A DNA stretch of 64,000 nt from Prosopocoilus inquinatus (lineage: Eukaryota; Arthropoda; Insecta; Coleoptera; Lucanidae): assembly GCA_036172665.1 (NCBI GenBank), contig CM069878.1:20656501-20720500 (forward strand), given 5' to 3'. A program made the translations under genes and the position numbers. How positions within the stretch are numbered: the stretch's first letter is position 1; every line of letters starts with the position of its first letter. The notes below the pieces were generated by a model. It had not been told where the DNA came from, did not search any database, and worked only from the letters and a program-made list of their open reading frames with translations. Below are positions 1-42,650 of this stretch, piece after piece.

Positions 1-53
1 TCCTAATGCAATGTCAGTCAGGTCAAAAAGCAGTCGTAGGATGTCGCTGTTTT
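1..53 (+). mobile_element. Retrozyme remnant, cut by window edge
   Basis: This segment matches the last ~50 nt of the 312-bp hammerhead repeat unit found at 9.2-10.85 kb. It shares the CAATGTCAG and AAAAGC blocks and the GATGTCGCT block, and stops at the same terminal position (called end X here) as the copies at 10847 and 27406. It is plus-oriented and diverged by several substitutions. Its ribozyme part would lie to the left of the window. Confidence 0.7.
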
Positions 54-627
54 AACCGTTCGATATTTTTATTAAACATAATTTCAATCAAAAACTGAAT
101 CTCAGAAGCTCTTGCATTTTTATAATGGTCAAATCAATTGCGAATGAGCTCCACTAATATGCCTTTAAAGGAATACGTCGACTTACCAGTCACCTGTGTA
201 TACTTTATTAAGTAAAAATAATGAGTTACAGCTTGGGGCCTTTATAATCAAATAGACGGTTTATTTGAATTCAGTTTCAGTGAATTCCCGTTTAAAGAAG
301 GAATTTGTTTTTGCCCACCCTGTATATAGAAAACGCTATTGCTGAACTGTTAGGATGAATAAAATATTCATAAAAATCTATGCAAGACCATTTTTTTTAG
401 TTTCTTGTGTTCGTTAATAATTAAAATAATAAATGAGGGTTCTGATTAATAAAACTAACCCTGTACCTGTGTATTATACTGAATCAATGACAAATATTCT
501 TTTTCCAATAAACACGGTCGTTCCTTATTTTATTTATGTATATTATTGTTCGATGAAGACAAATGTCTTCTGAATAGTTTCTTTTTTATTTCGTCTTTTG
601 AAACGTTTGGTGATTGTTGATTTGCTT
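54..627. other. AT-rich noncoding stretch, no gene seen
   Basis: No coding frame of note. An ACCCTGTATA string at 317-326 resembles the termini of the TA-flanked elements found elsewhere in the window, so part of this stretch may be an eroded element end. No matching partner end was found. Confidence 0.4.
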
Positions 628-7975: not shown

Positions 7976-9201
7976 GTGTCTAGAGGTACGGTCTATCTTC
8001 AGCGACTATTCGTTGCAAATAAACGCAGCAGTTAATCACATTAGTTGGTCAAATGCATTGCATATGTGGTTGGTCTGTATTCAGCTACAAGTCGCTGAAA
8101 GATATAGTCGAATTTTTTTTTTAAGGTAACTTAGACGCATGCGTTTTATCAATCGCAGGTTATACGGTACCAAGTTTTACATATTAACGAAAGTTTCTTT
8201 CGTATTTTATTATGCTTTCTGCGAAAAGGGCTAAAACTGATAGAAGAAACAGTAATAATAATGGAAAAAAAACAGACAAAGATTTTTAAAGGAAGAAAAT
8301 GAAAAACCGCTAAACGAAGTTTCTACACATTCAGCACTATGTTCTGTGATTAAACGAACCGACTGCAGGTGTTGCACTACCAAAAGATATACTCCTATTA
8401 GCTGTTCACTTTCTTTTTAGATTCAGACCAGGCCCTGTTAGGGTGACATTTTTGTTAGTATCACAATGAAACATAGACGTCAGAAAATTGATTGACGATC
8501 ATTTTTAATTTTATAGTTATATTTTTGGAAACTACCACTGCCACTGTTCCCAGCTCGACTAAAGCAAGACTGATCATTCCGTTAAAACAAGAAGTATCGT
8601 CCCCAGCAGACAGTTGATAATTATTTATTTCTTCATCTTCTTGCTGTTGGTGATGAGTTATCAACTTTTTCCATGGTCTTTCACCACCTCCTCCAACGCG
8701 CATACCTTTAGATGCTTCTGCTAACACGGTAGTTCTTCAAATTCATTTGGTTTCTTAAATTTGGGTGATCTTTGATACAATAACTAAACGCCTTCACTAT
8801 AGCACATTTAGTTCCGCCACTTATAACTTTTGGCATTTTGACGAGATTATAATAAAAAATATATTTGTTTTAACTTACTTTTTAGTTTAGTTATGCCACC
8901 GTAGTCCACATTGTCTACGTATCAGCAACACAGTTAGTACTGATGAAGTGACACTGTCATTATTTCTTTCATGTCAGATTTAGACTTCCTTCAAAATACC
9001 TGCACGTAACTTAACGAAAACAAAAAAAAACATAGCCCTCTAGAATCTAAAAAGAATGTGAACAGCTAATATATTAAAAGCGATATGATATTATTTGATG
9101 TTTTGTGACAAATGGCTTTGACGCATTGTATCGTACATTTCATTTTTAATTAGAAATTGTCTTGTGGCCGTGTGTTTTAAATATTCTATCTTTATATCAC
9201 C
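7976..9201. other. Noncoding stretch with weak ORF at 8.46-8.73 kb
   Basis: A minus-strand frame of 88 codons (8461-8727) has a glycine patch and a glutamine-rich stretch. A second minus frame starting near 8840 (MPKVISGGTKC) lies upstream in another phase. Together they could be a frameshifted relic of a transposase N-terminus, but no motif settles this. Confidence 0.3.
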
Positions 9202-9267
9202 TTTATGTTTTGTTATTAGAAAAATTTTGTGCAAATCGTTTTTGATTGCAGTGAAAACCTCGAGCAG

Positions 9268-9314
9268 CCTCTGGACAGCTGTTTCAGCCCTACTTTGGGC
9301 TTCTTCAGCAGAGA
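9268..9314 (-). ncRNA. Type I hammerhead ribozyme, unit 1
   Basis: On the minus strand: 6-bp stem I (9309-9314 with 9268-9273), core CUGAAGA (9302-9308), stem II AGCCC/GGGCU with a 6-nt loop, GAAAC (9281-9285), a 2-bp stem III closed by AGCU, and GUC with cleavage after 9274. All invariant core positions are present, with A at variable position 7. Confidence 0.85.
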
Positions 9315-9578
9315 TGTAGCTCGACATTCCCACTGCAGACCAAAAACGACTTGCCCAATTTATTCGCAATTGCGATGTAAGAATGATGAACAGATAAAAT
9401 AGCGACATCTTACGATCGCTTTTTGACCTGACATTGCAGTAGGATAGACAAATTGAAGCGGGATTTGCTCCTAATAAGTCCCCCATGCAAGGCGGCCATG
9501 CTTGCTGTCAAAGCATAATGAAAGTTTTTAGAAAATTTTTGTGCAAATCGTTTTTGATTGCAGTGAAAACCTCGAGCA

Positions 9579-9627
9579 GCCTCTGGACAGCTGTTTCAGC
9601 CCTGCTTGGGGCTTCTTCAGCAGAGAC
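9579..9627 (-). ncRNA. Type I hammerhead ribozyme, unit 2
   Basis: Same fold as unit 1 with a 7-bp stem I (GUCUCUG at 9621-9627 pairing with CAGAGGC at 9579-9585), core CUGAAGA at 9614-9620, 5-bp stem II, GAAAC, minimal stem III and GUC cleavage after 9586. Confidence 0.87.
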
Positions 9628-9890
9628 GTAGCTCGACATTCCCACTGCAGACCAAAAACGACTTGCCTAATTTATTTGCAATTGCCATGTAAGAATGATG
9701 AACAGATAAAATAGCGACATCTTACGATCGCTTTTTGACCTGACATTGCAGTAGGATAGACAAATTGAAGCGGGATTTGCTCCTAATGAGTCCCCCATGC
9801 AAGGCGGCCATGCTTGCTGTCAAAGCATAATGAAAGATTTTAGAAAAATTTTGTGCAAATCGTTTTTGATTGCAGTGAGAACCTCGAGCA

Positions 9891-9939
9891 GCCTCTGGAC
9901 AGCTGTTTCAGCCCTGCTTGGGGCTTCTTCAGCAGAAAC
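9891..9939 (-). ncRNA. Type I hammerhead ribozyme, unit 3
   Basis: Core, stem II and stem III are identical to unit 2. Stem I reads GUUUCUG, so two pairs become G-U wobbles, and the helix still forms over 7 positions. Predicted cleavage after 9898. Confidence 0.83.
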
Positions 9940-10202
9940 GTAGCTCGACATTCCCACTGCAGACCAAAAACGACTTGCCCAATTTATTCGCAAATGCGAT
10001 GTAAGAATGATGAACATATAAAATAGCGACATCTTACTATCGCTTTTTGACCTAACATTGCAGTAGGATAGACAAATTGAAGCGGGATTTGCTCCTAATG
10101 AGTCCCCCATGCAAGGCGGCCATGCTTGCTGTCAAAGCATAATGAAAGATTTTAGAAAAATTTTGTGCAAATCGTTTTTGATTGCAGTGAAAACCTCGAG
10201 CA

Positions 10203-10251
10203 GCCTCTGGACAGCTGTTTCAGCCCTGCTTAGGGCTTCTTCAGCAGAGAC
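10203..10251 (-). ncRNA. Type I hammerhead ribozyme, unit 4
   Basis: Core CUGAAGA at 10238-10244, stem I 10245-10251 with 10203-10209, stem II AGCCC/GGGCU, GAAAC, GUC. Only the stem II loop differs from unit 2. Predicted cleavage after 10210. Confidence 0.86.
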
Positions 10252-10611
10252 GTAGCTCGACATTCCCACTGCAGACCAAAAACGACTTGCCCAATTTATT
10301 CGCAATTGCGATGTAAGAATGATGAACAGATAACAGCTGTCCAGAGGCTGCTCGAGGTTTTCACTGTAATCAAAAACGATTTGCACAAAATTTTTCTAAA
10401 AACTTTCATTATGCTTTGACAGCAAACATGGCCGCCTTACATGGGGGACTTATTAGGAGCAAATCCCGCTTCAATTTGTCTATCCTACTGCAATGTCAGG
10501 TAAAAAAGCGATCGTAAGATGTCGCTATTTTATCTGTTCATCATTCTTACATCGCAATTGCGAATAAATTGGGCAAGTCGTTTTTGGTCTGCAGTGGGAA
10601 TGTCGAACTAC

Positions 10612-10660
10612 GTCTCTGCTGAAGAAGCCCCAAGCAGGGCTGAAGCAGCTGTCCAGAGGC
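10612..10660 (+). ncRNA. Type I hammerhead ribozyme, inverted unit 6
   Basis: Plus-strand copy in the inverted part: GUCUCUG (10612-10618), CUGAAGA (10619-10625), AGCCC/GGGCU, then GAAG instead of GAAA, AGCU loop, GUC ending at 10653, CAGAGGC. The change at position 15.1 replaces an A-U with a G-U at the base of stem III next to the scissile site, which probably weakens cleavage. The preceding inverted unit 5 starts inside this motif (about 10334) and lacks the CUGAAGA half. Confidence 0.78.
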
Positions 10661-10920
10661 TGCTCGAGGTTTTCACTGCAATCAAAAACGATTTGGACAA
10701 AATTTTTCTAAACACTTTCATTATGCTTTGACAGCAAGCATGGCCGCCTTGCATGGGGGACTTATTAGGAGCAAATCCCGCTTCAATTTGTCTATCCTAC
10801 TGCAATGTCAGGTCAAAAAGCGATCGTAAGATGTCGCTATTTTATCTTTTATGTTTTGTAGTGATTGTAATATCTGGCTCTTCTTGGTAAACAGGGTCCT
10901 ACTGGGCCATTTATTCACAT

Positions 10921-14730: not shown

Positions 14731-15724
14731 CCTAAAGCCCGAATTACACCTGTCGAATAATGATGGGCCTATCGATAGTCGGAACTATCGATAGCGGTTA
14801 CTATCGATAGTGCTATCGATAGTACTATCTATAAGATTATCAACAGACTATCGATAATTTTCACTATCGATAGTGCTATCGGTATAACTATCGATAGTAC
14901 TATCATAGCATAGTGGGAACTGTCGGTAAGGCTATCGATGGGATTATCGACAGACTATCGATAGTTTTTACTATCGATAGTGCTATCGGTAGAACTATCG
15001 GTAGAACTATCGATAGTGCTATCGGTAGAACTATCGATAGTGCTATCGGTAGAACTATCGATAGTGCTATCGGTAGAACTATCGACAGTGATGTCGGTAG
15101 AACTATCGGTAGTATTATCGATAGTACTATCGAAAGAATTATTCGAATGAACTATGTGAAATTGCATGACTGATATTACTGAAAGATTTGGCTGAAGCTA
15201 ACAATGATAAAAGTGTTTACTGTCAGACATATAATGTCAATTTAACCACATTTGTCAGTATAGTTATTTTTATATTAAACACGCGAACTTTGGTGTTTCC
15301 TGCCTGTAAGAATATCACTTTTTCTAAGAGCAAAACATGCATTAAATTGATTATAATTTTAAAGTGCGATTATGAAAGTAATTTAGAAAATTTAATATAA
15401 AAATTAACTCCTTCAATAACATCAGTCATGCAATTTTACATAATTGATTCGAATAATTCTCTCGATAGTAATATCATAGTGCTATCGATAGTTTTACCGA
15501 TAGCACTAGACTCTCGATAGTTCCGACTATCGATAGGCCCACAACTACTGTCGAGTGCTGAGCCGAGAGAGTGTATTCGACCGAGTGTTCGGCTAATGTA
15601 ATCAGTACAGTCAGTACTCGGCTTATTCCCCGTGCAATCATCTGTTCCAATAACAGTTTCTCGGTTGAGTGACAAAGCAATAGTGACTCGGCCCAGCACT
15701 CGGCAGATGTAATTCGTCTTTAGG
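14731..15724. mobile_element. Foldback element with TATCGATA subterminal repeats
   Basis: The outer ends are inverted (CCTAAAG at 14731 and CTTTAGG at 15718-15724, plus matching GAATTACA blocks). A second inner inverted pair runs from GGGCCTATCGATAG (14766) to its complement ending at 15541, and a third pair at 15127-15173 against 15423-15465. The palindrome TATCGATA occurs 13 times between 14770 and 15123 and twice near 15483-15535. The right end instead carries ACTCGG-type repeats (15550-15700). No transposase is present. Arrays of subterminal motifs normally bind the transposase; TATCGATA is also the Drosophila DREF box. Superfamily and TSD are undetermined. Confidence 0.75.
15008..15079. 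repeat. 24-bp tandem repeat within foldback element
   Basis: Three exact 24-bp periods (15008, 15032, 15056), each built of one TATCGATA and one TATCGGTA box. Because 24 is a multiple of three, long frames open by chance on both strands here (14913-15173 plus, 14955-15167 minus). Confidence 0.9.
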
Positions 15725-22204: not shown

Positions 22205-23453
22205 TTCACAACAAAAGCTCTGATACTGGAAGACAATACCTGAACCTTTTCTTTACCTGACTGATATTCTCATGAGCCATTCTTTAAACCAAGTGAGGAG
22301 TTTTGTTCAGCGACGTTGGCTTGAGATTGGCCTCTATCTGCCACGACTTTAAATTTCATCTGATAAAGTCTGTTTTGCCTTTCTCCCACTGCAATGATAC
22401 TCTCATTTTTCATCAGCTTACAAACTCTGTTATCGGATAGGTGCGTCATTCCTTTTTCAAGGGCAGCACCTAAACAAAAGAGATTATAAGTTAAATCGGG
22501 AACAAATAAAACATTGCTGAGATGTTTTCTCTTCCATTTCTTTACATCGATAGCTTCAATAATAATTTCTCCAGATCCAACAGCATCTATTATCTATCTC
22601 CAATTCTAACTTCGTTGACGGTTGCTCCAGTACTTTATGTTATGGACAGTGCTTCTCCGACGAGAGCTTCTCCTTTATCTGATTTCATTTCATTTCAGTA
22701 ATGACAAATATCTGATTTTTCAAATTTCTTAACTTCCAATCTTGTTTCTTCTATGGTGAGTCTGGATATTAAATTCGTAAGTGTTCGATTATTAGCTTGC
22801 GTTGATCTCCATGCACTGACAAAATGTTTATATGAAGGCGGCAATGTCATTAGAATTTTTGTAATTATCGTTTTATCCGGGATTTTCTCATCAAGAATCT
22901 GCAGACAATGTACAAGATCTTCTAGCCGAGCAACATGCCTGACAATATCATCGGCTGAATTTTTCTGAAGACCGAACCACTGTTGTGGTAACACGTACAC
23001 ACTTGTTTGTGATTTCTGCTCGTAGACTTACACTAATCTGTTCCACATAGCTTTTGATGTTTCGAGTTAACAATATGCAATAAAGGGTTTTCTTCAACTG
23101 ATGTAGCAATAATGGGCTTAGCCACACTGTCATTCTTTGTCCATGTAGCAACTGCCTGATTGTATTTTATCTGATTACAGCTTCGTCCTGTTCAGGGTAT
23201 GTGAATCTTCCACTGACAACTTCCCATGTGCCATTAGATTTTAATGTGACGTGAACTTGAAATTTCCAAGCAACCCAATTCTCAATGCCTCTAAGGCCCG
23301 ATTTCTTCACCTACGAATAAATTTATCTGCCAGGTAGCATCCTCGGGAACTATTATCAATGCAATGGTTTCCAAGCATAATACCTGACAGATAAATTTAT
23401 CAGGTGAAGAAATCGGGCATAAGTTTTGTAATTCGGACGATCTCGTTTTCCAT
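22205..23453 (-). pseudogene. Ty1/Copia gag and protease/pre-integrase relic
   Basis: Start codon at 23451-23453 on the minus strand. After 11 codons the frame is split by a MITE (23296-23418) and then resumes with the NWVAWKFQV block typical of Copia gag. 22695-23000 carries the Retrotran_gag_2-like part (LHCLQILDEKIPDKTIITKIL, TLPPSY, LTIEETRLE). 22300-22600 reads as the protease C-terminus and the gag-pre-integrase domain (NVLFVPDLTYNLFCLG, then RQNRLYQMKF), ending with a MAHENISQVKK block near 22230. A zinc knuckle was not seen. The protease DSGAT motif is altered (STGAT). Frameshifts and stops make it inactive. Confidence 0.85.
23296..23418. mobile_element. Short MITE inserted in Copia gag
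   Basis: A 123-bp near-palindrome with ends GCCCGATTTCTTCACCT and its complement, and an inner ATAAATTTATC pair. The duplicated TAAG on each side (23292-23295, 23420-23423) marks the target site: deleting the element and one TAAG rejoins the gag frame exactly. Confidence 0.85.
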
Positions 23454-25597: not shown

Positions 25598-26185
25598 CAG
25601 TGACCGGCAGAAAGTTGGCTACATATTGGAAAATTCTTTATTATTGACAGTGGCTGCTCGTAACTAATGGTCCAGGGTAGGCGACACAATGAAGAAGAAA
25701 TAGTTAGGCGTACATTTAAGCCTTAAATATTTAAGTGATTTTGATAATGGGAACATATGTCCAAACGATTTTTTTCTTAAAATTCCATAAACTCTCATAT
25801 AGCAAAGCTTGTCGGAGCTATAATAAACAACCCTGTATATTTAATTTAAGAGATTAATGTAGTATTAGTTAACGCGTCTTTATAATTAAGAAATTATTCT
25901 TCTCAATACGTTTTAAATTTAAACAGTTATTTATATGCTTTTTAGACATTCATGTAGCAACAGTTGGCAATTTTTTTTAAATCAACTTTAACCTGACATA
26001 CCCAAACGTTTTGTACATTTTTAAAATTGTTGTCATACCAAGTTAAACAAACAATGAAGTAACTGCCCTTTTGTTTTATCGTTAATTAAAATGTGCAATT
26101 TTGGCAGTGGTCTGCCCAAAGATATTTCTACTCGATCGTGTTCACTTCGTCGTGAGAATGGCATTTCTAATAAAGTACTTACACA

Positions 26186-27356
26186 CAGGGAAGGGCAAAT
26201 GTATGGAACCGGCTTAATATTTGGAAAACTGTTTGACGTTTGAAATTTAGTGGGTGATTTAAAATCAATAAGACCGACCTAAATTAGCAATTTGTTTCAA
26301 TTGTTTATCTGCTCTTGTTTCTAAAATCAACGCCTCTGATTTTTTTTAAATGACAATCTGCTGATTTTTTTCACTTATTTAATAGTACGTTTAAATCTCT
26401 AAATGACCACATAAAAATATTTATATATTACCTAAGAAAATTTTGGAGAAAGTATCCTTTTAATGAGAAAGTTAGGAAAAATGGTTTACGTTGATATTCA
26501 GTGTTTGTTTTCCTGTTTTTAAAGGAATTTTTATTAAAGTTTACTTTGGCTCTATCTTAAAAACAGTCCATTATCTTGTGGCCTTCTAGTTTTTTGTTGA
26601 AACTAGTATTTTTGTCGAATAGCAACCAATAAACCATTTTTCCTAATTTTTTCATTCAAACGTTATTTTCTCGAAAATTTTCTTATGTAATTGATAAATA
26701 TTTTTATGTGGTCGTTTCGAGAATTAAACGAACTCTTAAATAAAGGGAAAAAATCAGCAGTTAGTCATTTAAAAAAAATCAAGCTGGCGTTAAGTCCCAA
26801 AAACAAAAGCAGATAAACAAATGAAACAAATTGGTAATGAATGTCTTATTGACAATAATTCATACATCAAATTTGAAACAAATACATCAAACAGCTTTCG
26901 AAATATTAATTGCCTTCCTCGTATTTGTTTTCATGTTTTTAAGCAACATTTATTAAGTTTCCTTTATTTCTGTTTTAAAAACAAACCATAACCTTGTGGC
27001 CTTCTAATTCTTTTCGTTTAAACTGGTATTTTTGTCGAATATCATCCTAAAGCCATTTTTCAGAACTTTTTCATTCAAACGCTATTTTCTCCAAAATTCT
27101 CTGATGTAATGGATAAAAAAAAATTATGTGATTGTACAGAGTATTAAACAACCTACTAAATAAAACAAAAACTTGAACGGGATGTCATTTAAAAAAAAAA
27201 CAAGTTGGCGTTGTATCTCAAAAACAGGAACAGATAAACAATTGAGACAAATTAATAATGTAGGTTTTATTGACTAAATCACACACCAAATTTCAAGTAG
27301 ATACGTCAAACGGTTTTTGAAATATTCACCCGGTTCCATACTTTTGTCCTTCCCTG
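26186..27356. mobile_element. Long-TIR element, CAGGGAAGG family, copy 1
   Basis: The left end CAGGGAAGGGCAAATGTATG and the right end form inverted arms that stay alignable for more than 150 bp, including TGTTTGACGT and TTGTTTATCTGCTC-type blocks. The right flank is TA; the left flank has CA. Internally there are further direct and inverted copies of TTTTTATGTGGTCGT-like blocks. Non-coding. Relatives at 33939-35042. Confidence 0.75.
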
Positions 27357-27405
27357 TATAAAACATCCATAGCGATAATATGATAACAATAATAATACCT
27401 ACAAC

Positions 27406-27755
27406 AGATGAAACAGCGACATCCTACGATCGCTTTTTGACCTGACATTTCAGTAGGAAAGACAAATTGACGCGGATTTGCTACCTCATAAGTCCCCCAC
27501 GCAAGGCGGCCATGCTTGCTGTCAAAGCATAATGAAAGTTTTAAAAACTTTGTGCAAATCGTTTTTGATTGCAGTGAAAACCTCGAGCAGCCTCTGTACA
27601 GCTGTTTCAGCCCTGTTTGGGGCTTCGTCAGCAGAGACGTGCTACCTAATAAGTCGGGACTTATTCGGTAGCACGGCCCTATTTGTCCCCAAACAGGGCC
27701 GAAACAGCTTCTTGAGGTTTTCACTGCAATCAAAAACGATTTGCAACAAAATTTT
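27406..27755. mobile_element. Retrozyme copy 2 with 13-bp TSD
   Basis: A 350-bp insertion made of a minus-oriented piece (27406 to about 27642) and a plus-oriented piece (to 27755) of the 312-bp unit. It is flanked by the identical 13-bp direct repeat TAATACCTACAAC (27393-27405, 27756-27768). The left outward end falls on exactly the same unit position as the right end of the 10.8-kb array, and the right outward end lies within a few bases of that array's left end. Confidence 0.88.
27590..27638 (-). ncRNA. Type I hammerhead ribozyme, retrozyme copy 2
   Basis: GUCUCUG/CAGAGGC stem I, core CUGACGA (C at variable position 7), AGCCC/GGGCU stem II, GAAAC, AGCU, then GUA in place of GUC. A at position 17 is allowed in hammerheads. 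All required core residues are intact. Confidence 0.8.
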
Positions 27756-27768
27756 TAATACCTACAAC

Positions 27769-28130: not shown

Positions 28131-28200
28131 ATAACCAAGATTTCTCAGAAAAATTTATTCTATATGAAAGCTCCTGCATCTTTCAAAACGTAAGATCCGT

Positions 28201-29776
28201 GTGTCAAACTTTGAATATCTCCTGTCATATACCGAGGAAATAAAAATATTTGAAATCGACAAGAACTTCATTAGAAATGCTTGCAAAATACAACTTCAGA
28301 GCAATTTAAATAATTCAATAAAAACTGTACATCATAATGAATATTATAAAATCATTGAAGGGTTAAGAAAGAAAAACTGTTTCTACTTAAAAGCTGATAA
28401 AGGTAATAAGATTGTGATTTTAGATAAACCTGATTGTTATGAAAGGGTAAACAACTTATTAAATAATGGTCCCTATAAGAAACTCCCCCGAAACCCGTTG
28501 CCAAAGTTAATTAAAGCTGTCAAATACACGATTAAAGAATGTCCCAATCTTATTACTAAACAAGATAAATTGAAGATTGATGTATCTAACCCCACTGTAC
28601 CCAAATTGTATGTCCTTCCCAAAATATACAAGGCAGGTAAATCGGTGAGACCAATCGTGTCCGGTATAAACTTACCCATTTACTCTCTTTCCAAATGGTT
28701 GAACATCGAGCTCAGTGCGCTTCTCAATCGTCAAGATAAATTTTCGGTAAAAAACTCAATGAAGTTTATAAATAAGATTAAAAATATTCCTTTACAAGAA
28801 GGGTAAATTATGGTCTCCTTTGATGTTCAAGGGAAAATTATGGTCTCCTTTGATGTTCAATCCTTATTTCTTAGTGTGCCCATACCTGAAGCACTAACTT
28901 ATTTGCGGGAACTACGGACAGTTAATAATGTAGATAAAGATATATTGGAGGAATACGCCATGCTCACATCTCTTTGCATGTCTCAGAATTGTATTCAAAT
29001 AGATGGTGAGTATGTTGAATAAGTTCAAGGGACCGCAATGGGAAACTGTTTGTCACCGTTTTTGACCAATTTATTTATGAATAACTTCGAAAATGATGTA
29101 AGAGCTAATGATCAGTATTTTCCAAGAATTTGGTTACGTTATGTGGATGAAATTTTTGCTATTTTTGATACTAAGAAGGTGATTTGGAGGTTTTTATAGG
29201 AAAACTAAATTCAAAATTTGATAGTATTAAATTTACATACGAAAAGGAAGAAAACAGCTCGGTTTCCTTTTTACACACTCATATAATTAGAAACAGCAAA
29301 AATGAATTAGAAATCGACATTTATCGTAAAGTTACAAATACAAGCCGGTTTATAATTACTGAATCGCAACATTCGGTACAACACATATTCGCGGCTCTAT
29401 TTTTTTTTAGTAAATAGATTACTCTATTTTCCACTTACTAAACCCCGATATGATAAAGAACTTAAATATATTAAAAATGTTGCGGTTCATAATGGTTATG
29501 CCCCCCAAATAGTAGATAATGTAATTAGGAAGATTAGCTATAGGAAGCAAGTCCAAAATTCTAGCACTTTAACGGAAACTTCATCCCTAGAAAAATTTGT
29601 TAAAATGCCTTTCGATCCGTTTTGCACCAAAGGTTTAAAACATATTTTAAAAACCCAAAACTTACGATTAGGTTTTTCAACTAACATTACCATAAAGCAT
29701 TTATTGGGAAACCCGGAAGATAAAGTTGATATTGAACAGAAATCTGAAATTTATGAAATTAAGTGTAACGGATGGA
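28201..29776 (+). pseudogene. PLE1 reverse transcriptase relic
   Basis: The first 201-codon frame (28201-28806) holds Penelope RT N-terminal motifs: KKNCFYLKADKGNKIVILDK and KLYVLPKIYK...VRPIVSG. The next frames carry VSFDVQSLF, then GTAMGNCLSPFLTNLFMNNF after a stop at 29020-29022, WLRYVDEIFAIF (catalytic YxDD changed to YVDE), and a thumb-like VSFLHTHII..DIYRKVTNTSRFI. The last piece (29605-29776) ends in IYEIKCN, the start of the GIY-YIG nuclease, where PLE2 is inserted. A 30-bp duplication at 28806-28860 repeats the VSFDVQ motif. Stops and frameshifts make it inactive. A close relative (PLE3) is at 40.9-42.7 kb. Confidence 0.9.
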
Positions 29777-29911
29777 CGAAATCCTCCATGAATAAGTTGG
29801 CGATTACAGGAGATAATGCTGATCCCATGGGTGATCCTTCTACTTGTTTATAACGTTGGTTCTTGAAGATGAAGTAGGTGTTCTTCAAGCAGTGCTTCAC
29901 CAGGTCCAGGT

Positions 29912-31177
29912 TATAAACAAGTAGAAGGATCACCCATGGGATCAGCATTATCTCCTGTAATCGCCAACTTATTCATGGAGGATTTCGAAGTACGGGCCAT
30001 CAATACCGCAAGTCACAAACCACACCTGTGGCTCAGATATATGGACGACACCTTCATAATATGGAAGCATGGAGAAGAACAACTACTAAGATTTCTGCAA
30101 CACCTGAATGAAATCCATCCGAAGATCAAGTTCACGATGGAAATCGAAGAAAACAACGAACTTCCATTCCTCGATGTACTTATAAAGAAAAAACCAGATG
30201 GAAGCCTTGGACATTCCGTATACCGAAAACCAACCCACACGGAACGGTACCTGAACGCACAATCACATCACCATCCAGCACAATTGCAATCAGTGGTAAG
30301 GACCCTCGTCACCCGGTCCCAAAGATTGGCTGACTCAGAAAACAAGGTAGAAGAAATTAAGAAAATCCGCTCATCTTTAATAAAAAATGGATATCAGGAC
30401 AAACAAATCAGGAAAGCCGAACACCAACGCAAACCCAAGACACAGGAAGAGGAAAAAGATATAGTAGGAACAGCATGCCTACCATTTGTTAAAGGGACAA
30501 CAGAGAAGATCAGCAGAATACTGAAGAAACACAATATCCGGACATCATTCAACACCGACAAGAAAATTGGAAACATCCTGCCAACAGTCAAAACTAAAAT
30601 ACAACTGGAAAGCCAAGGCGTGTACGGAATTCCCTGTCAAGATTGCGACAAGGTCTACATAGGCCAAACAAATAGAAAAATAAGCGTCAGGAGAGAAGAA
30701 CATCGAAAGGCCGTCGAGAAGGACGAGAAAACATCATCATTGGCACAACACGTAAAAGCGACTTCACACAAAATAGATTTCGACAACACCAGAACAATTG
30801 CCAGCGTAGAACACAAGACCAAACGCATCATCCGAGAAGCGATAGAAATCGAGAAACATCAGATGAACTTAAACACCAGAGATGATGCCTTACGACTACC
30901 ACCCACCTGGAGGCCAGTGATCCGAAAATCCACCGACCGTCGAGGACCAGTAACCCGAAGCCAGAAACCAGCGAACCCCGGACCATCAGGATTAGGAGAA
31001 AGCAGTCAACAGGCACGACCCAATCAACCAACAACAAGAAGTCAAGCGGAAAAACCACCAAGCGTAACGACGCGTGACCGCAACACGGTACTTAAACCAT
31101 CACCAGCGCGACCAGAAGCCACTGTGACTCGAGTAACGACGAGGAGCAGAAGCAGGCAAGCAGCAGCGAAGACCTGA
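29912..31177 (+). CDS. PLE2 RT (partial) plus GIY-YIG endonuclease
   Basis: This is the C-terminal part of a Penelope-type polyprotein, open from the inversion junction to a TGA at 31175-31177. The first Met is 29936 (413 codons), but the frame is open upstream through KQVEGSP, so the true start is missing. Counting from that Met, the RT block MGSALSPVIANLF opens the frame, YMDD (both catalytic aspartates intact) is at 35-38, and ELPFLDVLI and SVYRKPTHT lie around 75-102. A linker with CQDC and the nuclease follow: GVYGIPC (228), YIGQT (241), Arg 252, and the catalytic Glu of REAIEIEKHQ near 301. Residues 330-413 form a basic TRSQ-rich tail. RT fingers are absent, so it is not autonomous. Confidence 0.9.
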   Translation, partial: YKQVEGSPMGSALSPVIANLFMEDFEVRAINTASHKPHLWLRYMDDTFIIWKHGEEQLLRFLQHLNEIHPKIKFTMEIEENNELPFLDVLIKKKPDGSLGHSVYRKPTHTERYLNAQSHHHPAQLQSVVRTLVTRSQRLADSENKVEEIKKIRSSLIKNGYQDKQIRKAEHQRKPKTQEEEKDIVGTACLPFVKGTTEKISRILKKHNIRTSFNTDKKIGNILPTVKTKIQLESQGVYGIPCQDCDKVYIGQTNRKISVRREEHRKAVEKDEKTSSLAQHVKATSHKIDFDNTRTIASVEHKTKRIIREAIEIEKHQMNLNTRDDALRLPPTWRPVIRKSTDRRGPVTRSQKPANPGPSGLGESSQQARPNQPTTRSQAEKPPSVTTRDRNTVLKPSPARPEATVTRVTTRSRSRQAAAKT

Positions 31178-31210
31178 AGATGGCAAGTGAGACCTTGCCG
31201 AAACGTTGTC
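31174..31210 (+). ncRNA. Hammerhead-like motif at the PLE2 stop codon
   Basis: CUGAAGA (31174-31180) overlaps the PLE2 stop codon. It is followed by stem II GGCAAG/CUUGCC (31182-31187, 31194-31199), GAAAC and GUC with a minimal stem III (cleavage after 31210). One unpaired U lies between the core and stem II, and stem I does not pair, so activity is doubtful. Confidence 0.5.
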
Positions 31211-31320
31211 AGAAGACAAATAGTTCTTTAGAGAACTCAACGCGGAGGACTACCCGGAAGAATACTACAGCATTCAACACCCGCGGAAGCCTACGGATTA
31301 ACATATATATATATAATATA

Positions 31321-31884: not shown

Positions 31885-32349
31885 CTACTTTAACTTGAAG
31901 GCCGTCGTCCACTGTTGAATTCCTGGCTTCCGCTTGGAATCGCGTTTCTTGCCGGATTTCGTTTTCCATTGCAGAAGAACTTCCTCAAGGCTGCTGCTGC
32001 TACTGCTGCTGGTAGTCTTGCTGCTGCTTCTTGTAAGTCGTTGAGACTGAGTTGGTACGTCTGCAGTCGTAGTATTTATAGTGGTCGATGGCGGCAGCGG
32101 GGTGAAACGGTGGGCAGGGATTGGTCTGTTGATGCGTGACGAACCGTTAATGAGATGTTTCCATGTATTGTAAAGGTAGAATCCATTATCACGGTTCAGG
32201 TTATTGGAGTGTTTGAAAATTTCTATAGATTCATGGATTTTCCGGTTAAACAAATGAGACGAGCGGGCTAGGAGTTTTGTGTCGGAAAATTGGATCTGGT
32301 GGCCGGTTTCTAGTTTGTGTTCAATTGAACCCGTTGCGCCCATCGACAA
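31885..32349 (-). pseudogene. PLE4 GIY-YIG C-terminal fragment
   Basis: The minus frame of 154 codons reads as the end of a Penelope nuclease: EHKLETGHQIQF, DTKLLARSS, then the catalytic-Glu region KIHESIEIFKHSNNLNRDNG and WKHLI. It is followed by a serine-rich, basic tail. The upstream half of the nuclease and all of RT are absent. The 3' part of the same sequence is duplicated head-to-head at 32342-32527. Confidence 0.82.
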
Positions 32350-32527
32350 CTATAAATACGACGACAGCGGACATACCAACTCAATATCAACGACTTACAA
32401 GAAACAGCAGCAAGACCAGTTGCAGCAGCAGCCCTGAGGAAGTTCTTCTGCTATGGAGAACGAAACGTCGGCAGTAGAAGAAATCCGAGAAGCGGTTCCA
32501 ACCGGAAGCCAGGAATTCAACGGTAAG
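32342..32527 (+). repeat. Inverted partner of the PLE4 fragment
   Basis: This segment is an inverted copy of about 31905-32100 (blocks ACTATAAATACGACGAC, CAACGACTTACAAGAA, GAGGAAGTTCTTCTGC, GGAAGCCAGGAATTCAAC). The two halves meet head-to-head at about 32341, with PLE-sense 3' ends facing outward. A CUGAGGA...GAAAC hammerhead-like trace lies at about 32434-32468. Confidence 0.75.
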
Positions 32528-32644: not shown

Positions 32645-32785
32645 ACAAAATTTTGTTGCAAATCATTTTTTATTACAGAGGATCTCTCGAACATCCTCTA
32701 TAGCTGTTTCAGTCCTATTTGGGTCCTCGCTAGCGGAAGCAATGTCAGGTTAGAAAACTATCACAGGATGTCGCTAATATTAAGT
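32645..32785. mobile_element. Retrozyme copy 3, decayed
   Basis: The left part (32645-32738) is a minus-oriented piece with TTGCAAATC, a degraded ribozyme (core CUAGCGA, GAAAC kept) and an AGCT loop. The right part (32739-32785) is plus-oriented, GCAATGTCAGGT through GGATGTCGCT. The outward ends correspond to the same two unit positions as in copies 1 and 2. The ribozyme is inactive by sequence. Confidence 0.7.
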
Positions 32786-33654: not shown

Positions 33655-33935
33655 AAGTAGTTTTGTAGGGGTAGCTGTAATACTTTAGACCTAACTTTTC
33701 AGTTTACACATTTCGTCAAAAATTTTTGAAAGAAATATTCTTTAGATTATTTGGCACAAAAAAGGTTCAGATTCAACTCAATTTTGGAGTAATTGAGGTT
33801 TAAAAGTTCGCATGCACATAATGTTAAAACATAAAATTTATCAATTTCTTATTGTTCACTTTGTATAAAAAGGTGACCTTATTTTTTGATGTTCTATCAC
33901 CCTGAAAATATCGGGAGATATTTCTAAACGACCGT
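33655..33935. repeat. Dispersed repeat R3, copy 1
   Basis: Colinear with 49012-49330: blocks TAGTTTTGTAGGGGTAGCT, TTCTTTAGATTATTTGGCAC, TTTTGGAGTAATTGA, AAAAAGGTGACCTTATTTTT and GGGAGA.ATTTCT. Non-coding. Confidence 0.7.
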
Positions 33936-33938
33936 ATA

Positions 33939-35042
33939 CAGGGAAAGGCAAAAGTATGGTACCGGCTTAATATTTGGAAAAATGTTTGACGTATCTACTT
34001 GAAATTTGGTATGTGATTTAGAGTCAATAAAACCTATATTATCAATTTGTTTCAATTTATCTGCTCTTGTTTCTGAGATCCAACGCTTACTTGATTTTTT
34101 TTAAATGACAACCTGCTGATTTCTTTCCTGTATTTAATAGCTCGTTTAATTCTCTAAACGACTGCATAAAAATATAAATATCATCTATTACATAAGAATA
34201 TTTTCGAGAAAATAACGTTTAATGAAAAAGTTAAGAAAAATGGTTTATTGTTTGATATTCGACAAGATATTAGTTTTAACAAAAAAACTAGAAGACCACA
34301 AGATTATGGGTTGTTCTTAAGATACAACTAAAGCAAACTTCAATAAAAGTTAATTTAAAAACATACGGGGAAGGACAAAAGTATGGAACCGGCTAATTAT
34401 TTCGAAAACTGTTTGACGTATCTGTTTAAAACTTGGTGTGTGATTCAGGGTCACTAAGACTTCAGACATCATCAATTTATTTCAATTGGCTATCGGCTCT
34501 TGTTTCTGAGATCCAACGCCTACTTGATTTTTTTTTAATGACAACCTGCTTATTTTTTTCCTTTATTTAATAGTTCGTTTAATTTTCTAAACGACCATAT
34601 AAAAATAATTATCAATTACATAAGAAAATATTCGTTTTAACAAAAAAACTGTAAAACCACAAGATTATGGGCTGTTTTTAAGATAGAACTAAAGAAAATT
34701 TAATAAAAATTGCCTTAAAAACAAGAAAACAAATACTAAATATCAGCGTAAACCATCTTTTCTAACTTTTTCATTCAAACATTATTTTCTAGAAACTTTC
34801 TTATGCAATTGATAAATATTTTTATGTGGTCGTGTAAAGAATTAAACGAACTATTAAATAGAGAAAAAAAATCAGCAGGTTGTTATTTAAGAAAAACCAA
34901 GTAGGCGTTGGATCTCAGAAACAAGAGCAGATAAACAATTGAAACAAATTGGTAATGTAGGTCCTATTGACTCTGAATCACATACCAAATTTCAAATAGA
35001 TACGTCAAACAGTTTTCGGTTCCATACTTTTGCCCTACCCTG
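33939..35042. mobile_element. CAGGGAAGG-family element, tandem/compound copy
   Basis: Left end CAGGGAAAGGC at 33939 and right end ...CCTACCCTG at 35042 are both next to TA. A second left end (CGGGGAAGGACAAAAGTATG) lies inside at 34366, also after TA, so 34366-35042 is a complete 677-bp copy preceded by a truncated copy. Arms match those of 26186-27356. Confidence 0.72.
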
Positions 35043-35700
35043 TATAAATCTATACAGTGTCAATTAACCTAAAGCAATTATTATTCCTAGTTTAAAAACA
35101 TGCTATTGATACTATAAACCAATAAACATACTTCATTTTTCTCGTTTTCATTACACTTGTAATGTCGGTGATAACGGACGATTGCACCATCACCTCTCAT
35201 TCTTTTGAGCGGAATTTGCGACTGTAAAAGCATACTAAAAAATGTTACGTAGCATGTACAGTTATAACGTAACATATTTTATAAAAAGTAAATTTTACTT
35301 ACGTGTTCTTCAGGAAAATAATGACCACTCTCGTCTATGTTGTCTATCAAACCCAACCGACTACGAATTTTTTTCGAGCGGGAATCACAGAAGCATGTTT
35401 AAATAGGATTACAGTGTTGACAAATTTACTGGAGTCTATTGCACTTAAGTGAAAGTTGTATATCTGCAGTTCTATATACGAAAATGATACTAGCGCCACC
35501 AGTGGATATACGCTGGAACTAAAAGTATACGACTGCTTTCATTTGATCATCATTCGGCCGTCCAGAAAAATTTTGCCAAATGACAGGTAGAGGTCCTAGG
35601 AGTCCCCAAAAATTTTTTTGCATGGGATACAATCGAGCGTCCGTATACGGACGCTCAATTACGGGGGACGCCCAAGTGAACATACATAGTTTATTTCCAG
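35043..35700. other. Noncoding stretch with a 22-nt perfect palindrome
   Basis: 35635-35656 is a perfect palindrome centred on GTATAC with arms GAGCGTCC. No gene recognised. 35530-35660 is locally less AT-rich. Confidence 0.5.
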
Positions 35701-40879: not shown

Positions 40880-42650
40880 AAAAGATCTAAAGAACTTAAA
40901 TATATTAAAAATGTTGCGGTTCATAACTGTTATACCCCCCAAATAGTAGATAACGTAATTAGGAAGATTAGCTATAGGAAACAGGTCCAAAATTCTAGCA
41001 CTTTAACGGAAACCTCATCTCTAGGAAAATTTGTTAAAATGCCTTTCGATCCGTTTTGCATCATCGAGGGGTGCGTCATTAAAATTCTTAAGAGAAGTAG
41101 TCGACTTACACTTCCACTACAAAGACATATTTTTAAAACCCAAAACTTACGATTAGGTTTTTCAACTAACAATACCGTAAAGCATTTATTGGGAAAACCG
41201 AAAGATAAAGTTGATGTTCAACAGAAATCTGGAATTTATGAAATTAAGTGTAACGAATGTACTAGTAAATACAGGGTGTAATCAAATTAGTTTCACATAT
41301 TAATATCGCAAGTTCCTCATCATGTAAGAGAATTAATGCTGCAACTACCAAAAGTCTGGCTCAAAAATAAAAAAATTATCTAGTGGAGGAGTATTGACTC
41401 TTTTGTTTGAGAACTTTTGGTCGGCCGTGCACAAAAACAACGTTATAAAACAAAATTCGAGCAAGATTCAAGGTCAATTGCTTGATTGCATTTTAAAAGC
41501 TTTATGGGAATACTATAAAATAGAATCACCAACCCATTAAAGACGACAATTCAAATTGACAACCTCTTGGTCGTGGCCCGCGTGTGCATTAGAATTAAAG
41601 GAGAACAATTTAAATCTGCTTGCATTGATCAGAATTAAATCTGTTTCATTAGATAATCAACAATAACTAGATATTGACATCCTGGTCTTTGTAAACCAAT
41701 AGTACACATAATTTACAGTGCTAATTTCGCGTATTAAAGTAATTAAAAAAAATTATTAGTCGCTCTGATTGATTATCGCTTTTTTAATTATTTCCACTAA
41801 CGAATACGTTTCTTCGTAGTTCGAGTTCGATGACGCTTTATTGTTTTGGTTCCACAGAATAATAAAAGCGATGACTGCATTCAATAATGATTTTCCGAAA
41901 TGCAGAAAGAAAAGACATTCTTAACCATTTTGCGCAGTAAAGAAATACCAATGCAGTTTATTGACCAGCAAATAAAAGTACACGATGAATACGTATGAAT
42001 TAGTAAAATAATTTTAGAAAATGGAATTTTTAATTTTTATTTATTTTTACAGTTTTGTGAACAGAAAACTATTAACAATTACGTGAAAATTGAGAAAATT
42101 GATTGATTTAATAAGCAACGCGATAGATATTTATAATTCTTTTTCGTTATGGAATTACATAAGCGAAGATTTTAACCCAGTCTCCTTCAGTTCGATGACG
42201 CTTTATTTTTTTACGACGTTTTATGATGCGCTTGTAGAAACTGATACACGGCCAGTCAGAGGTTTTCAAACAAAAAGTCTCCGGGCTCTGGGGGGGTTTT
42301 AATTTCTTTAATTTTTCACCAATAAAATTCATATTTGCAGAAATCACTTTCTTAAGTGAGAAAGAACTTACAGTTTTAATATGTGAAACTTATTTGATTA
42401 CAGGCTGTATATTGGACAAACAAAAAGAAATATATTAACACGTTTTAAAGAACATTTAAGTCACTACAGATACAGTAAGTTTGAGCAATGAAATGTTGCA
42501 CATCATATTTACAATACAGGACACAGTGTTATTAAGGATAATTTAAAACTCATTAAGGAAGTTTCAAATAATAGGGAATTAAATGCTTACGAAAGTATTT
42601 TTATTCGGAAAAATAAAAATAATTTCATGAATTCAGACAACGGAACAATA
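40880..42650 (+). pseudogene. PLE3 RT end and GIY-YIG endonuclease relic
   Basis: 40900-41270 is nearly identical to the end of PLE1 (MPFDPFC, KTQNLRLGFSTN, KHLLGKP, then GIYEIKCNECTSKY). A TA-flanked element (41272-42407) splits the nuclease just before YIG. From 42410 the frame continues with IGQTKRNILTRFKEHLSHY, a stop at 42488, HHIYNTGHSVI, and the catalytic-Glu region ELNAYESIFI and NKNNFMNSDNG. GIY, YIG, Arg, Glu and Asn positions of the family are all present, but the stop and missing RT make it dead. Confidence 0.9.
41272..42407. mobile_element. TA-flanked TIR element inserted in PLE3
   Basis: CAGGGTGTAATCAAATTAG and its complement ending ...TTACAGGCTG form inverted ends, flanked by TA (41270-41271, 42408-42409). 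Removing it with one TA rejoins the codons of the YIG motif in PLE3, which fixes the boundaries. A related end is at 61318-61608. Non-coding. Confidence 0.9.

What the first reader, a model, noticed from the sequence alone, without database searches (positions are those of the whole stretch)
9202..10859. Retrozyme-like array: 312-bp hammerhead repeats bracketed by a 12-bp TSD
Five complete type I hammerheads with 5-bp stem II and (6-)7-bp stem I recur at an exact 312-bp spacing, and the whole multi-unit, partly inverted array is one insertion because TTTATGTTTTGT flanks both sides. Seen: repeats, motifs, TSD. Known: metazoan retrozymes are small hammerhead-bearing tandem repeats yielding circular RNAs. 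Inference: this is such an element and is or was mobile.
Basis: partly seen in the sequence, partly recalled or inferred. Interest (0 to 1): 0.95.

Follow-up and report, generated by a model that had tools for sequence, protein, structure and literature searches.

The report
Hammerhead retrozyme inserted as mirrored arrays
A 312-letter animal genetic parasite that carries a self-cutting RNA motif lies here as a mirrored tandem insertion, and dozens of relatives in the same genome share the same two outer ends, which suggests how such RNAs are copied back into DNA.

Summary
The array at 9214-10847 is one insertion between exact 12-bp duplications, made of 312-bp units in two opposite arms, with four intact type I hammerheads and a fifth with a core change. 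No Rfam family reaches its threshold. The genome (650 Mb, unnamed) gave 516 loose candidates, 40 scored. In 42 stretches I found 50 blocks. 36 non-duplicate insertions have two arms with both ends recognised. All 36 run <- ->, with one outer end at site X (194-199 in the 19 best-defined cases) and the other at site Y (54-61); none is X/X or Y/Y. 28 of 36 have an exact 12-bp target duplication, in sites enriched for AC|N12|GT. Arms of one insertion are on average more alike than shuffled arms. This is a metazoan-type retrozyme. The likeliest mechanism is copying of a circular RNA from two fixed start sites, one primed by each target strand, by Penelope-like machinery, which shows the same mirrored layout in this genome. 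Self-cleavage, circular RNA and the helper are not shown.

The parts
9202..9213 (.). left 12-bp target site duplication TTTATGTTTTGT
10848..10859 (.). right 12-bp target site duplication, exact copy
9214..10333 (-). left arm, 3.6 units of 312 bp; outer end is start site Y (unit position about 60)
10334..10847 (+). right arm, 1.65 units; outer end is start site X (unit position about 194)
9268..9314 (-). type I hammerhead, stem I 6 bp, cleavage expected after 9274
9579..9627 (-). type I hammerhead, stems 7/5/3 bp, cleavage expected after 9586
9891..9939 (-). type I hammerhead, cleavage expected after 9898
10203..10251 (-). type I hammerhead, cleavage expected after 10210
10612..10660 (+). fifth hammerhead with core change GAAAC to GAAGC, probably impaired
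   Evidence: not matched by the strict scan
27406..27756 (.). second insertion, 351 bp, also <- ->; left end X, right end Y; hammerhead at 27631-27597 (GUA site)
27394..27405 (.). 12-bp target duplication AATACCTACAAC of the second insertion (left)
27757..27768 (.). 12-bp target duplication of the second insertion (right)
32647..32785 (.). third, old and decayed insertion, <- ->, Y left and X right; no clean target duplication (3 mismatches)
1..61 (+). right end (X) of a fourth, old copy that starts left of the window
   Evidence: L059
29873..31302 (+). Penelope-like element B: reverse transcriptase frame 29873-31174 and its 3' end; example of the kind of machinery proposed, not shown to be the helper

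Best explanation
It is a metazoan-type, non-autonomous retrozyme. Tandem units are transcribed; the hammerheads cut the RNA into 312-nt pieces, which a host ligase closes into circles (inferred from the literature, not shown here). A Penelope-like reverse transcriptase/endonuclease cuts both strands of an AT-rich target 12 bp apart, preferring an AC|N12|GT context. Each freed 3' end then primes copying of the circle at its own fixed site, one strand at Y (about unit position 60), the other at X (about 197). The enzyme runs round the circle for a variable distance, which gives tandem units, and the two cDNAs are joined at a variable inner point, often at 2-4 bp of microhomology. The result is a <- -> array between 12-bp duplications. 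Shown: architecture, fixed ends, duplication length, target preference, likeness of the arms. Inferred: the circle, priming by both strands, the Penelope-like enzyme.
For: The rule was written down from the window's copies before the genome stretches were fetched. 36 of 36 non-duplicate two-armed insertions with both ends recognised pair one X and one Y end (20 XY, 16 YX, 0 XX, 0 YY). In the sites with an unambiguous 12-bp duplication and a clear end match, X lies at 194-199 (19 of 19) and Y at 54-61 (19 of 19). 28 of 36 have an exact 12-bp duplication, 4 one mismatch, 4 worse; control 5 of 400. Target: A at -2 in 16, C at -1 in 14, G at +1 in 13, T at +2 in 16 of 20 unambiguous sites (p 2e-5 to 4e-7, not corrected, motif found in the same data); 16 of 20 have at least one half (AC or GT), 7 of 20 both. 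Opposite arms differ by 0.0188 on average against 0.0300 for shuffled pairings, 0 of 20000 shuffles as low, 33 insertions. One insertion (L048) has a variant seen in no other insertion analysed, in 5 of 5 units of both arms. Inner junctions have >=2 bp overlap in 17 of 34 against 16% in simulated joins (p 5e-6). One unit folds better than shuffles (z -6.5). In the circular fold of the majority sequence Y and X are 0.63 and 0.68 unpaired against 0.34 overall. Penelope-like element B of the same genome: listed neighbouring matches under 8 kb apart are 20 -+, 2 --, 2 ++, 0 +-, tandem spacing 2687 bp in 3 pairs, two alternative outer ends about 30 nt apart. A lizard Penelope-like protein in vitro cuts and extends both strands and starts at two adjacent internal RNA sites (PMC11167929, parts 1-3 of 4 read).
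Against: No RNA data. The thermodynamic fold of the isolated hammerhead region does not show the three-way core; part of the core pairs with helix III instead. X and Y are not the most open places of the predicted circle (12% and 8% of 9-nt windows are as open), and in one window unit X is hardly more open than average (0.44 against 0.38). The helper is not identified: element B inserts in (AT)n repeats, unlike the retrozyme. An apparent shared target signature with Penelope-like element C fell when tested (6 of 6 other copies carry the same sequence there). One element B insertion (L054) has the long end on both sides. The window array's own site has CC before and AG after its duplication, so it lacks both halves of the target motif. 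In 6 of 33 insertions, the window array among them, the own arms are less alike than the median foreign pair, and the own partner is closest for only 6 of 33; several arrays mix haplotypes. Private variants shared by all covering units number 6, against 135 confined to one unit, as later mutation would also give. 13 of 50 blocks are single-armed, composite, truncated or duplicates. The lizard study saw no strand difference in start site and no need for the hammerhead in vitro.
Confidence: 0.74

Rival explanations
1. Hammerhead satellite DNA: units spread by recombination and gene conversion, without retrotransposition.
For: Tandem 312-bp units; mixed haplotypes inside the window's array.
Against: The arrays examined are short, dispersed and bounded by 12-bp duplications (28 of 36 exact, control 5 of 400) with fixed ends.
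Confidence: 0.03
2. A DNA transposon or MITE whose transposase moves a pre-made element with ends X and Y.
For: Fixed ends, constant duplication length, mirrored arms.
Against: The two ends are not inverted repeats of each other by eye; end positions wander over 6-8 nt; unit number and inner junction differ between insertions.
Confidence: 0.04
3. Self-primed (snap-back) reverse transcription makes the inversion, as proposed for rotifer Penelope elements (PMC3846280, passages seen).
For: 9 of 34 junctions join unit positions within 25 nt of each other, a little above the 5.6 expected (p 0.09), e.g. 72/72, 46/34, 299/304; filler hairpin at the inner junction of the second window copy.
Against: 25 of 34 junctions join positions further apart, and snap-back does not predict two different fixed outer ends used once each.
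Confidence: 0.1
4. Two-strand priming, but by a LINE-type enzyme (twin priming).
For: Twin priming gives <- -> insertions with duplications (recalled).
Against: Twin priming in LINEs is expected to have one fixed and one variable end (recalled), not two fixed ends; no poly(A) at the ends.
Confidence: 0.09

Closest known systems
Metazoan non-LTR retrozymes (Cervera and de la Pena 2020, PMC7229834; parts 1-4 of 6 read; supplement not seen)
   Same: type I hammerhead, units of about 170-400 bp in short tandem arrays, low GC, highly self-paired predicted circle, larger target duplications, coexistence with Penelope-like elements
   Different: the parts read describe tandem copies, not mirrored arms, two fixed outer ends, a constant 12-bp duplication or a target motif
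Penelope-like elements: PAc of Anolis (PMC11167929, parts 1-3 of 4) and Adineta Penelope (PMC3846280, passages)
   Same: head-to-head inverted copies, partial tandems, two alternative ends differing by a tail, AT-rich targets, target duplications; in PAc a hammerhead, and both strands cut and extended in vitro
   Different: they encode their own enzyme; tail is about 30-40 nt, here X and Y are about 137 nt apart; duplications of 8-10 bp in the Adineta passages
Axolotl and newt hammerhead repeats (as described in PMC7229834)
   Same: weak helix III with a tetraloop, units of about 330-350 bp, expressed as circles
   Different: other sequence; one axolotl type has a single pair in helix III, here 2-3 bp
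Schistosoma hammerhead W-elements (PMC8490949, passages)
   Same: satellite-like repeats suspected of mobility, one reported target duplication
   Different: no two-ended mirrored rule in the passages seen

Membership tests
metazoan non-LTR retrozyme | type I hammerhead in the units | tested here: met
   4 intact in the array; 126 motifs; 12 core bases unchanged in 113 of 119 unit pieces that cover them
metazoan non-LTR retrozyme | tandem units of about 170-400 bp, low GC | tested here: met
   312 bp; majority unit 43% GC
metazoan non-LTR retrozyme | dispersed copies with target duplications | tested here: met
metazoan non-LTR retrozyme | no protein coded | tested here: inconclusive
   one 138-aa stop-to-stop frame overlaps the array (9094-9507 minus); Pfam finds nothing above cut-off in it (best E 0.059); other frames not searched
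metazoan non-LTR retrozyme | self-cleavage in vitro and circular RNA in tissue | not testable with these tools
   no RNA data or bench work
Rfam hammerhead families | score above the curated threshold | tested here: not met
Penelope-like mobilisation | mirrored insertions with two alternative fixed ends | tested here: met
   retrozyme: (36 of 36); element B: 10 of 20 mirrored pairs fetched, 9 readable, 9 mixed; L054, long end on both sides
Penelope-like mobilisation | same target preference as a resident Penelope-like element | tested here: not met
   element B in (AT)n; element C signature withdrawn; other families not examined

The most novel reading that the evidence does not exclude
Each insertion is the fossil of one particle in which a Penelope-like enzyme dimer holds a single hammerhead-made RNA circle at two fixed sites and primes one copy from each strand of the cut target, so that both DNA strands start as reverse transcripts; the same rule (one long and one short end) would hold for Penelope-like elements in general and explain their inverted repeats, partial tandems and optional tail.
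Probability: 0.5. Interest if true: 0.87.

Novelty: new variant of a known kind. Interest (0 to 1): 0.76.

Why it matters
How animal retrozymes get back into DNA, and with whose enzyme, is put as 'LINEs or PLEs' in the texts seen (PMC7229834; PMC11722881, passages). The one-X-one-Y rule, the 12-bp spacing and the target preference give precise predictions that an assay like the published lizard one (PMC11167929) can test. They also offer one explanation for the inverted, tailed, partly tandem copies of Penelope-like elements.

Tried and rejected
Shared target signature of Penelope-like element C (31888-32524): it looked like AC|12 bp|GTT, but the left 'duplication' is present in 6 of 6 other copies fetched, so it is part of the element; withdrawn. 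A common hairpin before X and Y: seen by eye, little covariation in the old copies by eye; not used as evidence. Chimera of retrozyme and Penelope element at L039: its right side is 100% identical to L038 over 221 bp, so I take it as a truncated duplicate. Snap-back as the general cause of the inversion: set aside because 25 of 34 junctions join distant positions; it may explain a few. Rows dropped as duplicates before the counts: L032 (of L031), L041 (of L025), L039 (of L038); searches also left out L025, and one search kept L039. Collections of viral and of bacterial/archaeal contigs: 0 exact hits with one pattern; the tool says records near the window's genome may be left out. Naming the host by its COX1 gene: search did not complete. 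Search for older subfamilies with the second copy: not completed.

Bias: the 38 genome stretches beyond the window came from the best-scoring matches to the window's own unit (40 of 516 candidates scored), so young copies are over-represented.

Full report
What was checked. All of this is in the sequence. Tandem Repeats Finder gives period 312, 3.6 copies, 97% matches. The direct repeat TTTATGTTTTGT is exact at 9202-9213 and 10848-10859. The hammerhead sense strand is minus for 9214-10333 and plus for 10334-10847. A strict pattern for type I hammerheads finds four in the array and none in 60 random sequences of the same neighbour-base make-up. The fifth has a changed core. Rfam does not call it at its thresholds, and the sub-threshold hit is weak.

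More copies in the window. A blastn of the unit against the window finds a second insertion at 27406-27756 with its own 12-bp duplication AATACCTACAAC, an old one at 32647-32785, and the end of another at 1-61. The two bounded ones are also mirrored, and their outer ends fall at the same two unit positions as those of the array. I wrote this down as a rule to test.

Genome-wide test. The window lies in an unnamed 650-Mb genome of 173 contigs. A search with one unit gave 516 first-look candidates, of which 40 were scored. I fetched 38 stretches round the scored places plus one over the window's left edge and mapped unit segments in these 39 and in three window pieces. There are 50 blocks of 120 bp or more. 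With Y called at unit positions 47-72 and X at 186-211, and three duplicate loci dropped, 36 insertions are two-armed <- -> with both ends recognised: 20 X/Y, 16 Y/X, no X/X, no Y/Y. One further such block is the duplicate L032. If each end were chosen freely and equally the chance would be about 2 to the power -36 (my arithmetic). The other 13 blocks are single-armed, truncated, composite or duplicates; each has one outer end at X or Y.

Target sites. Of the 36, 28 have an exact 12-bp duplication, 4 one mismatch, 2 two, 2 three; random boundaries gave an exact one in 5 of 400 trials. Of the 28, 20 are exactly 12 bp; the other eight run to 13-15 bp, as chance matches next to the duplication could give. 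Seen with Y on the left, the flanks are enriched for AC before and GT after the 12 bp: 16 of 20 unambiguous sites have at least one half, 7 have both; the window's array has neither. The motif was found and scored on the same sites. It is palindromic, as expected if an enzyme pair cuts both strands at equivalent places (inference).

Template. Mean difference between units is 0.0125 within an arm (92 pairs), 0.0122 between arms of one insertion (97 pairs) and 0.0233 between insertions (7590 pairs). A shuffle of arm partners never reached the observed mean in 20000 trials (33 insertions). Single insertions are less clear: the own partner is the closest or tied for 6 of 33, and in 6 of 33 it ranks in the worse half, partly because most copies are nearly identical. 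Six private variants are shared by all covering units of an insertion, one of them (L048) by 5 units of both arms; 135 are in a single unit. On average, then, one template seems to have served both arms, which a circle explains. The window's own array does not fit simply: its units at 10209-9898 and part of 9897-9586 carry the genome's common haplotype, the rest an older one. Template switching or later gene conversion could both do this.

Junctions and ends. Of 34 inner junctions, 17 show 2 bp or more of overlap (15 of them 2-4 bp), 5 show 0-1, and 12 have unmatched or extra bases; simulated joins reach 2 bp in 16%. Nine join unit positions within 25 nt of each other (5.6 expected). Outer ends scatter over 6 nt at X and 8 nt at Y in the 19 scoreable sites each. 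Matches of 1-4 nt between target and template at the start sites occur in 12 of 19 (X) and 10 of 19 (Y) and are absent in the rest, so homology seems helpful at most.

Ribozyme and RNA. The commonest hammerhead (93 of 126 motifs, duplicates included) has stem I of 7 bp, stem II of 5 bp and a helix III of 2-3 bp with the palindromic loop AGCU. The 49 ribozyme positions vary less than the rest of the unit (60 of 6588 against 492 of 34850 base calls), with the caution that the copies are related. One unit folds far better than shuffles (z -6.5). In the circular fold of the majority sequence X and Y lie in two weakly paired stretches on either side of a hairpin domain, though about a tenth of all 9-nt windows are as open. 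The isolated hammerhead stretch folds with part of its core paired to helix III, so activity cannot be taken for granted.

Penelope-like elements. The frame 29873-31174 is a Penelope-type reverse transcriptase: Pfam sees RVT_1, the GIY-YIG part I recognise by eye only, and 531 relatives were found, 120 listed, the named ones mostly insects with some reptiles and a lamprey. In the genome it has 5632 first-look candidates; only the best 97 were scored and listed, all 98-100% identical, one with a stop inside. Where two listed matches lie within 8 kb, 20 of 24 pairs are -+ and none +-: the same mirrored layout. Ten of the 20 mirrored pairs were fetched at both ends. Nine can be read, and all nine join a long end (..GGATTAAC) to a short one (..CAT, read at the very edge of the fetched stretch), inside (AT)n repeats (L076 read by eye). 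The tenth (L068) runs on past the long site. One further copy (L054) has the long end on both sides, and the window copy has an irregular left arm. So the one-of-each rule has no exception among the 36 retrozyme insertions and is usual for this element.

Comparison with print. PMC7229834 (parts 1-4 of 6) proposes that metazoan retrozymes move by circles and favours Penelope-like elements as helpers; it reports larger target duplications but, in those parts, no mirrored arms. PMC11167929 (parts 1-3 of 4) shows a lizard Penelope-like protein that cuts and extends both strands and starts at two adjacent internal sites, which explains the tail. PMC3846280 (passages) describes inverted pseudo-LTRs with a tail on one of them. 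Searches for a paper that joins these for retrozymes: hammerhead + head-to-head + retrotransposon + Penelope, 0 papers; retrozyme + inverted + Penelope, 5 papers, of which passages of two were seen (PMC11722881; PMC7761336) and the rest only as listing; Penelope + twin priming + inverted, 2 papers, listing only. None seen describes the rule, but the library lacks most subscription papers, among them the 2014 paper on hammerheads in Penelope-like elements.

Verdict. A real, abundant and apparently young retrozyme family. The helper enzyme, the circle and the cleavage still need the bench.

Noticed in passing
window 29873-31302 and L062-L081: Penelope-like element B: 5632 first-look candidates, the 97 scored ones 98-100% identical, several open frames of 922 aa, inserted in (AT)n repeats at the ends examined, tandem period 2687 bp in 3 pairs.
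   Followed up: partly
window 27641-27686: The inner junction of the second retrozyme copy holds a filler hairpin that by eye looks copied from the retrozyme itself in both directions.
   Followed up: partly
window 31888-32524: Penelope-like element C with inverted arms; a minimal hammerhead-like core near 32430 seen by eye only, not found by the pattern scan; 3457 first-look candidates in the genome.
   Followed up: partly
window 28168-29850 and 40880-41278: Broken Penelope-like element A, two pieces 81% identical over 375 bp; element B appears to sit inside the first.
   Followed up: partly
window 14799-15133: Array of about 28 copies of the palindromic 12-mer TACTATCGATAG, 67% matches.
   Followed up: no
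window 26181-27362 and 33935-35048: Complex fold-back repeats shared between the two places; the second retrozyme copy lies beside the first.
   Followed up: no
window 22698-23027 (-): Copia-type gag fragment (Pfam Retrotran_gag_2).
   Followed up: no
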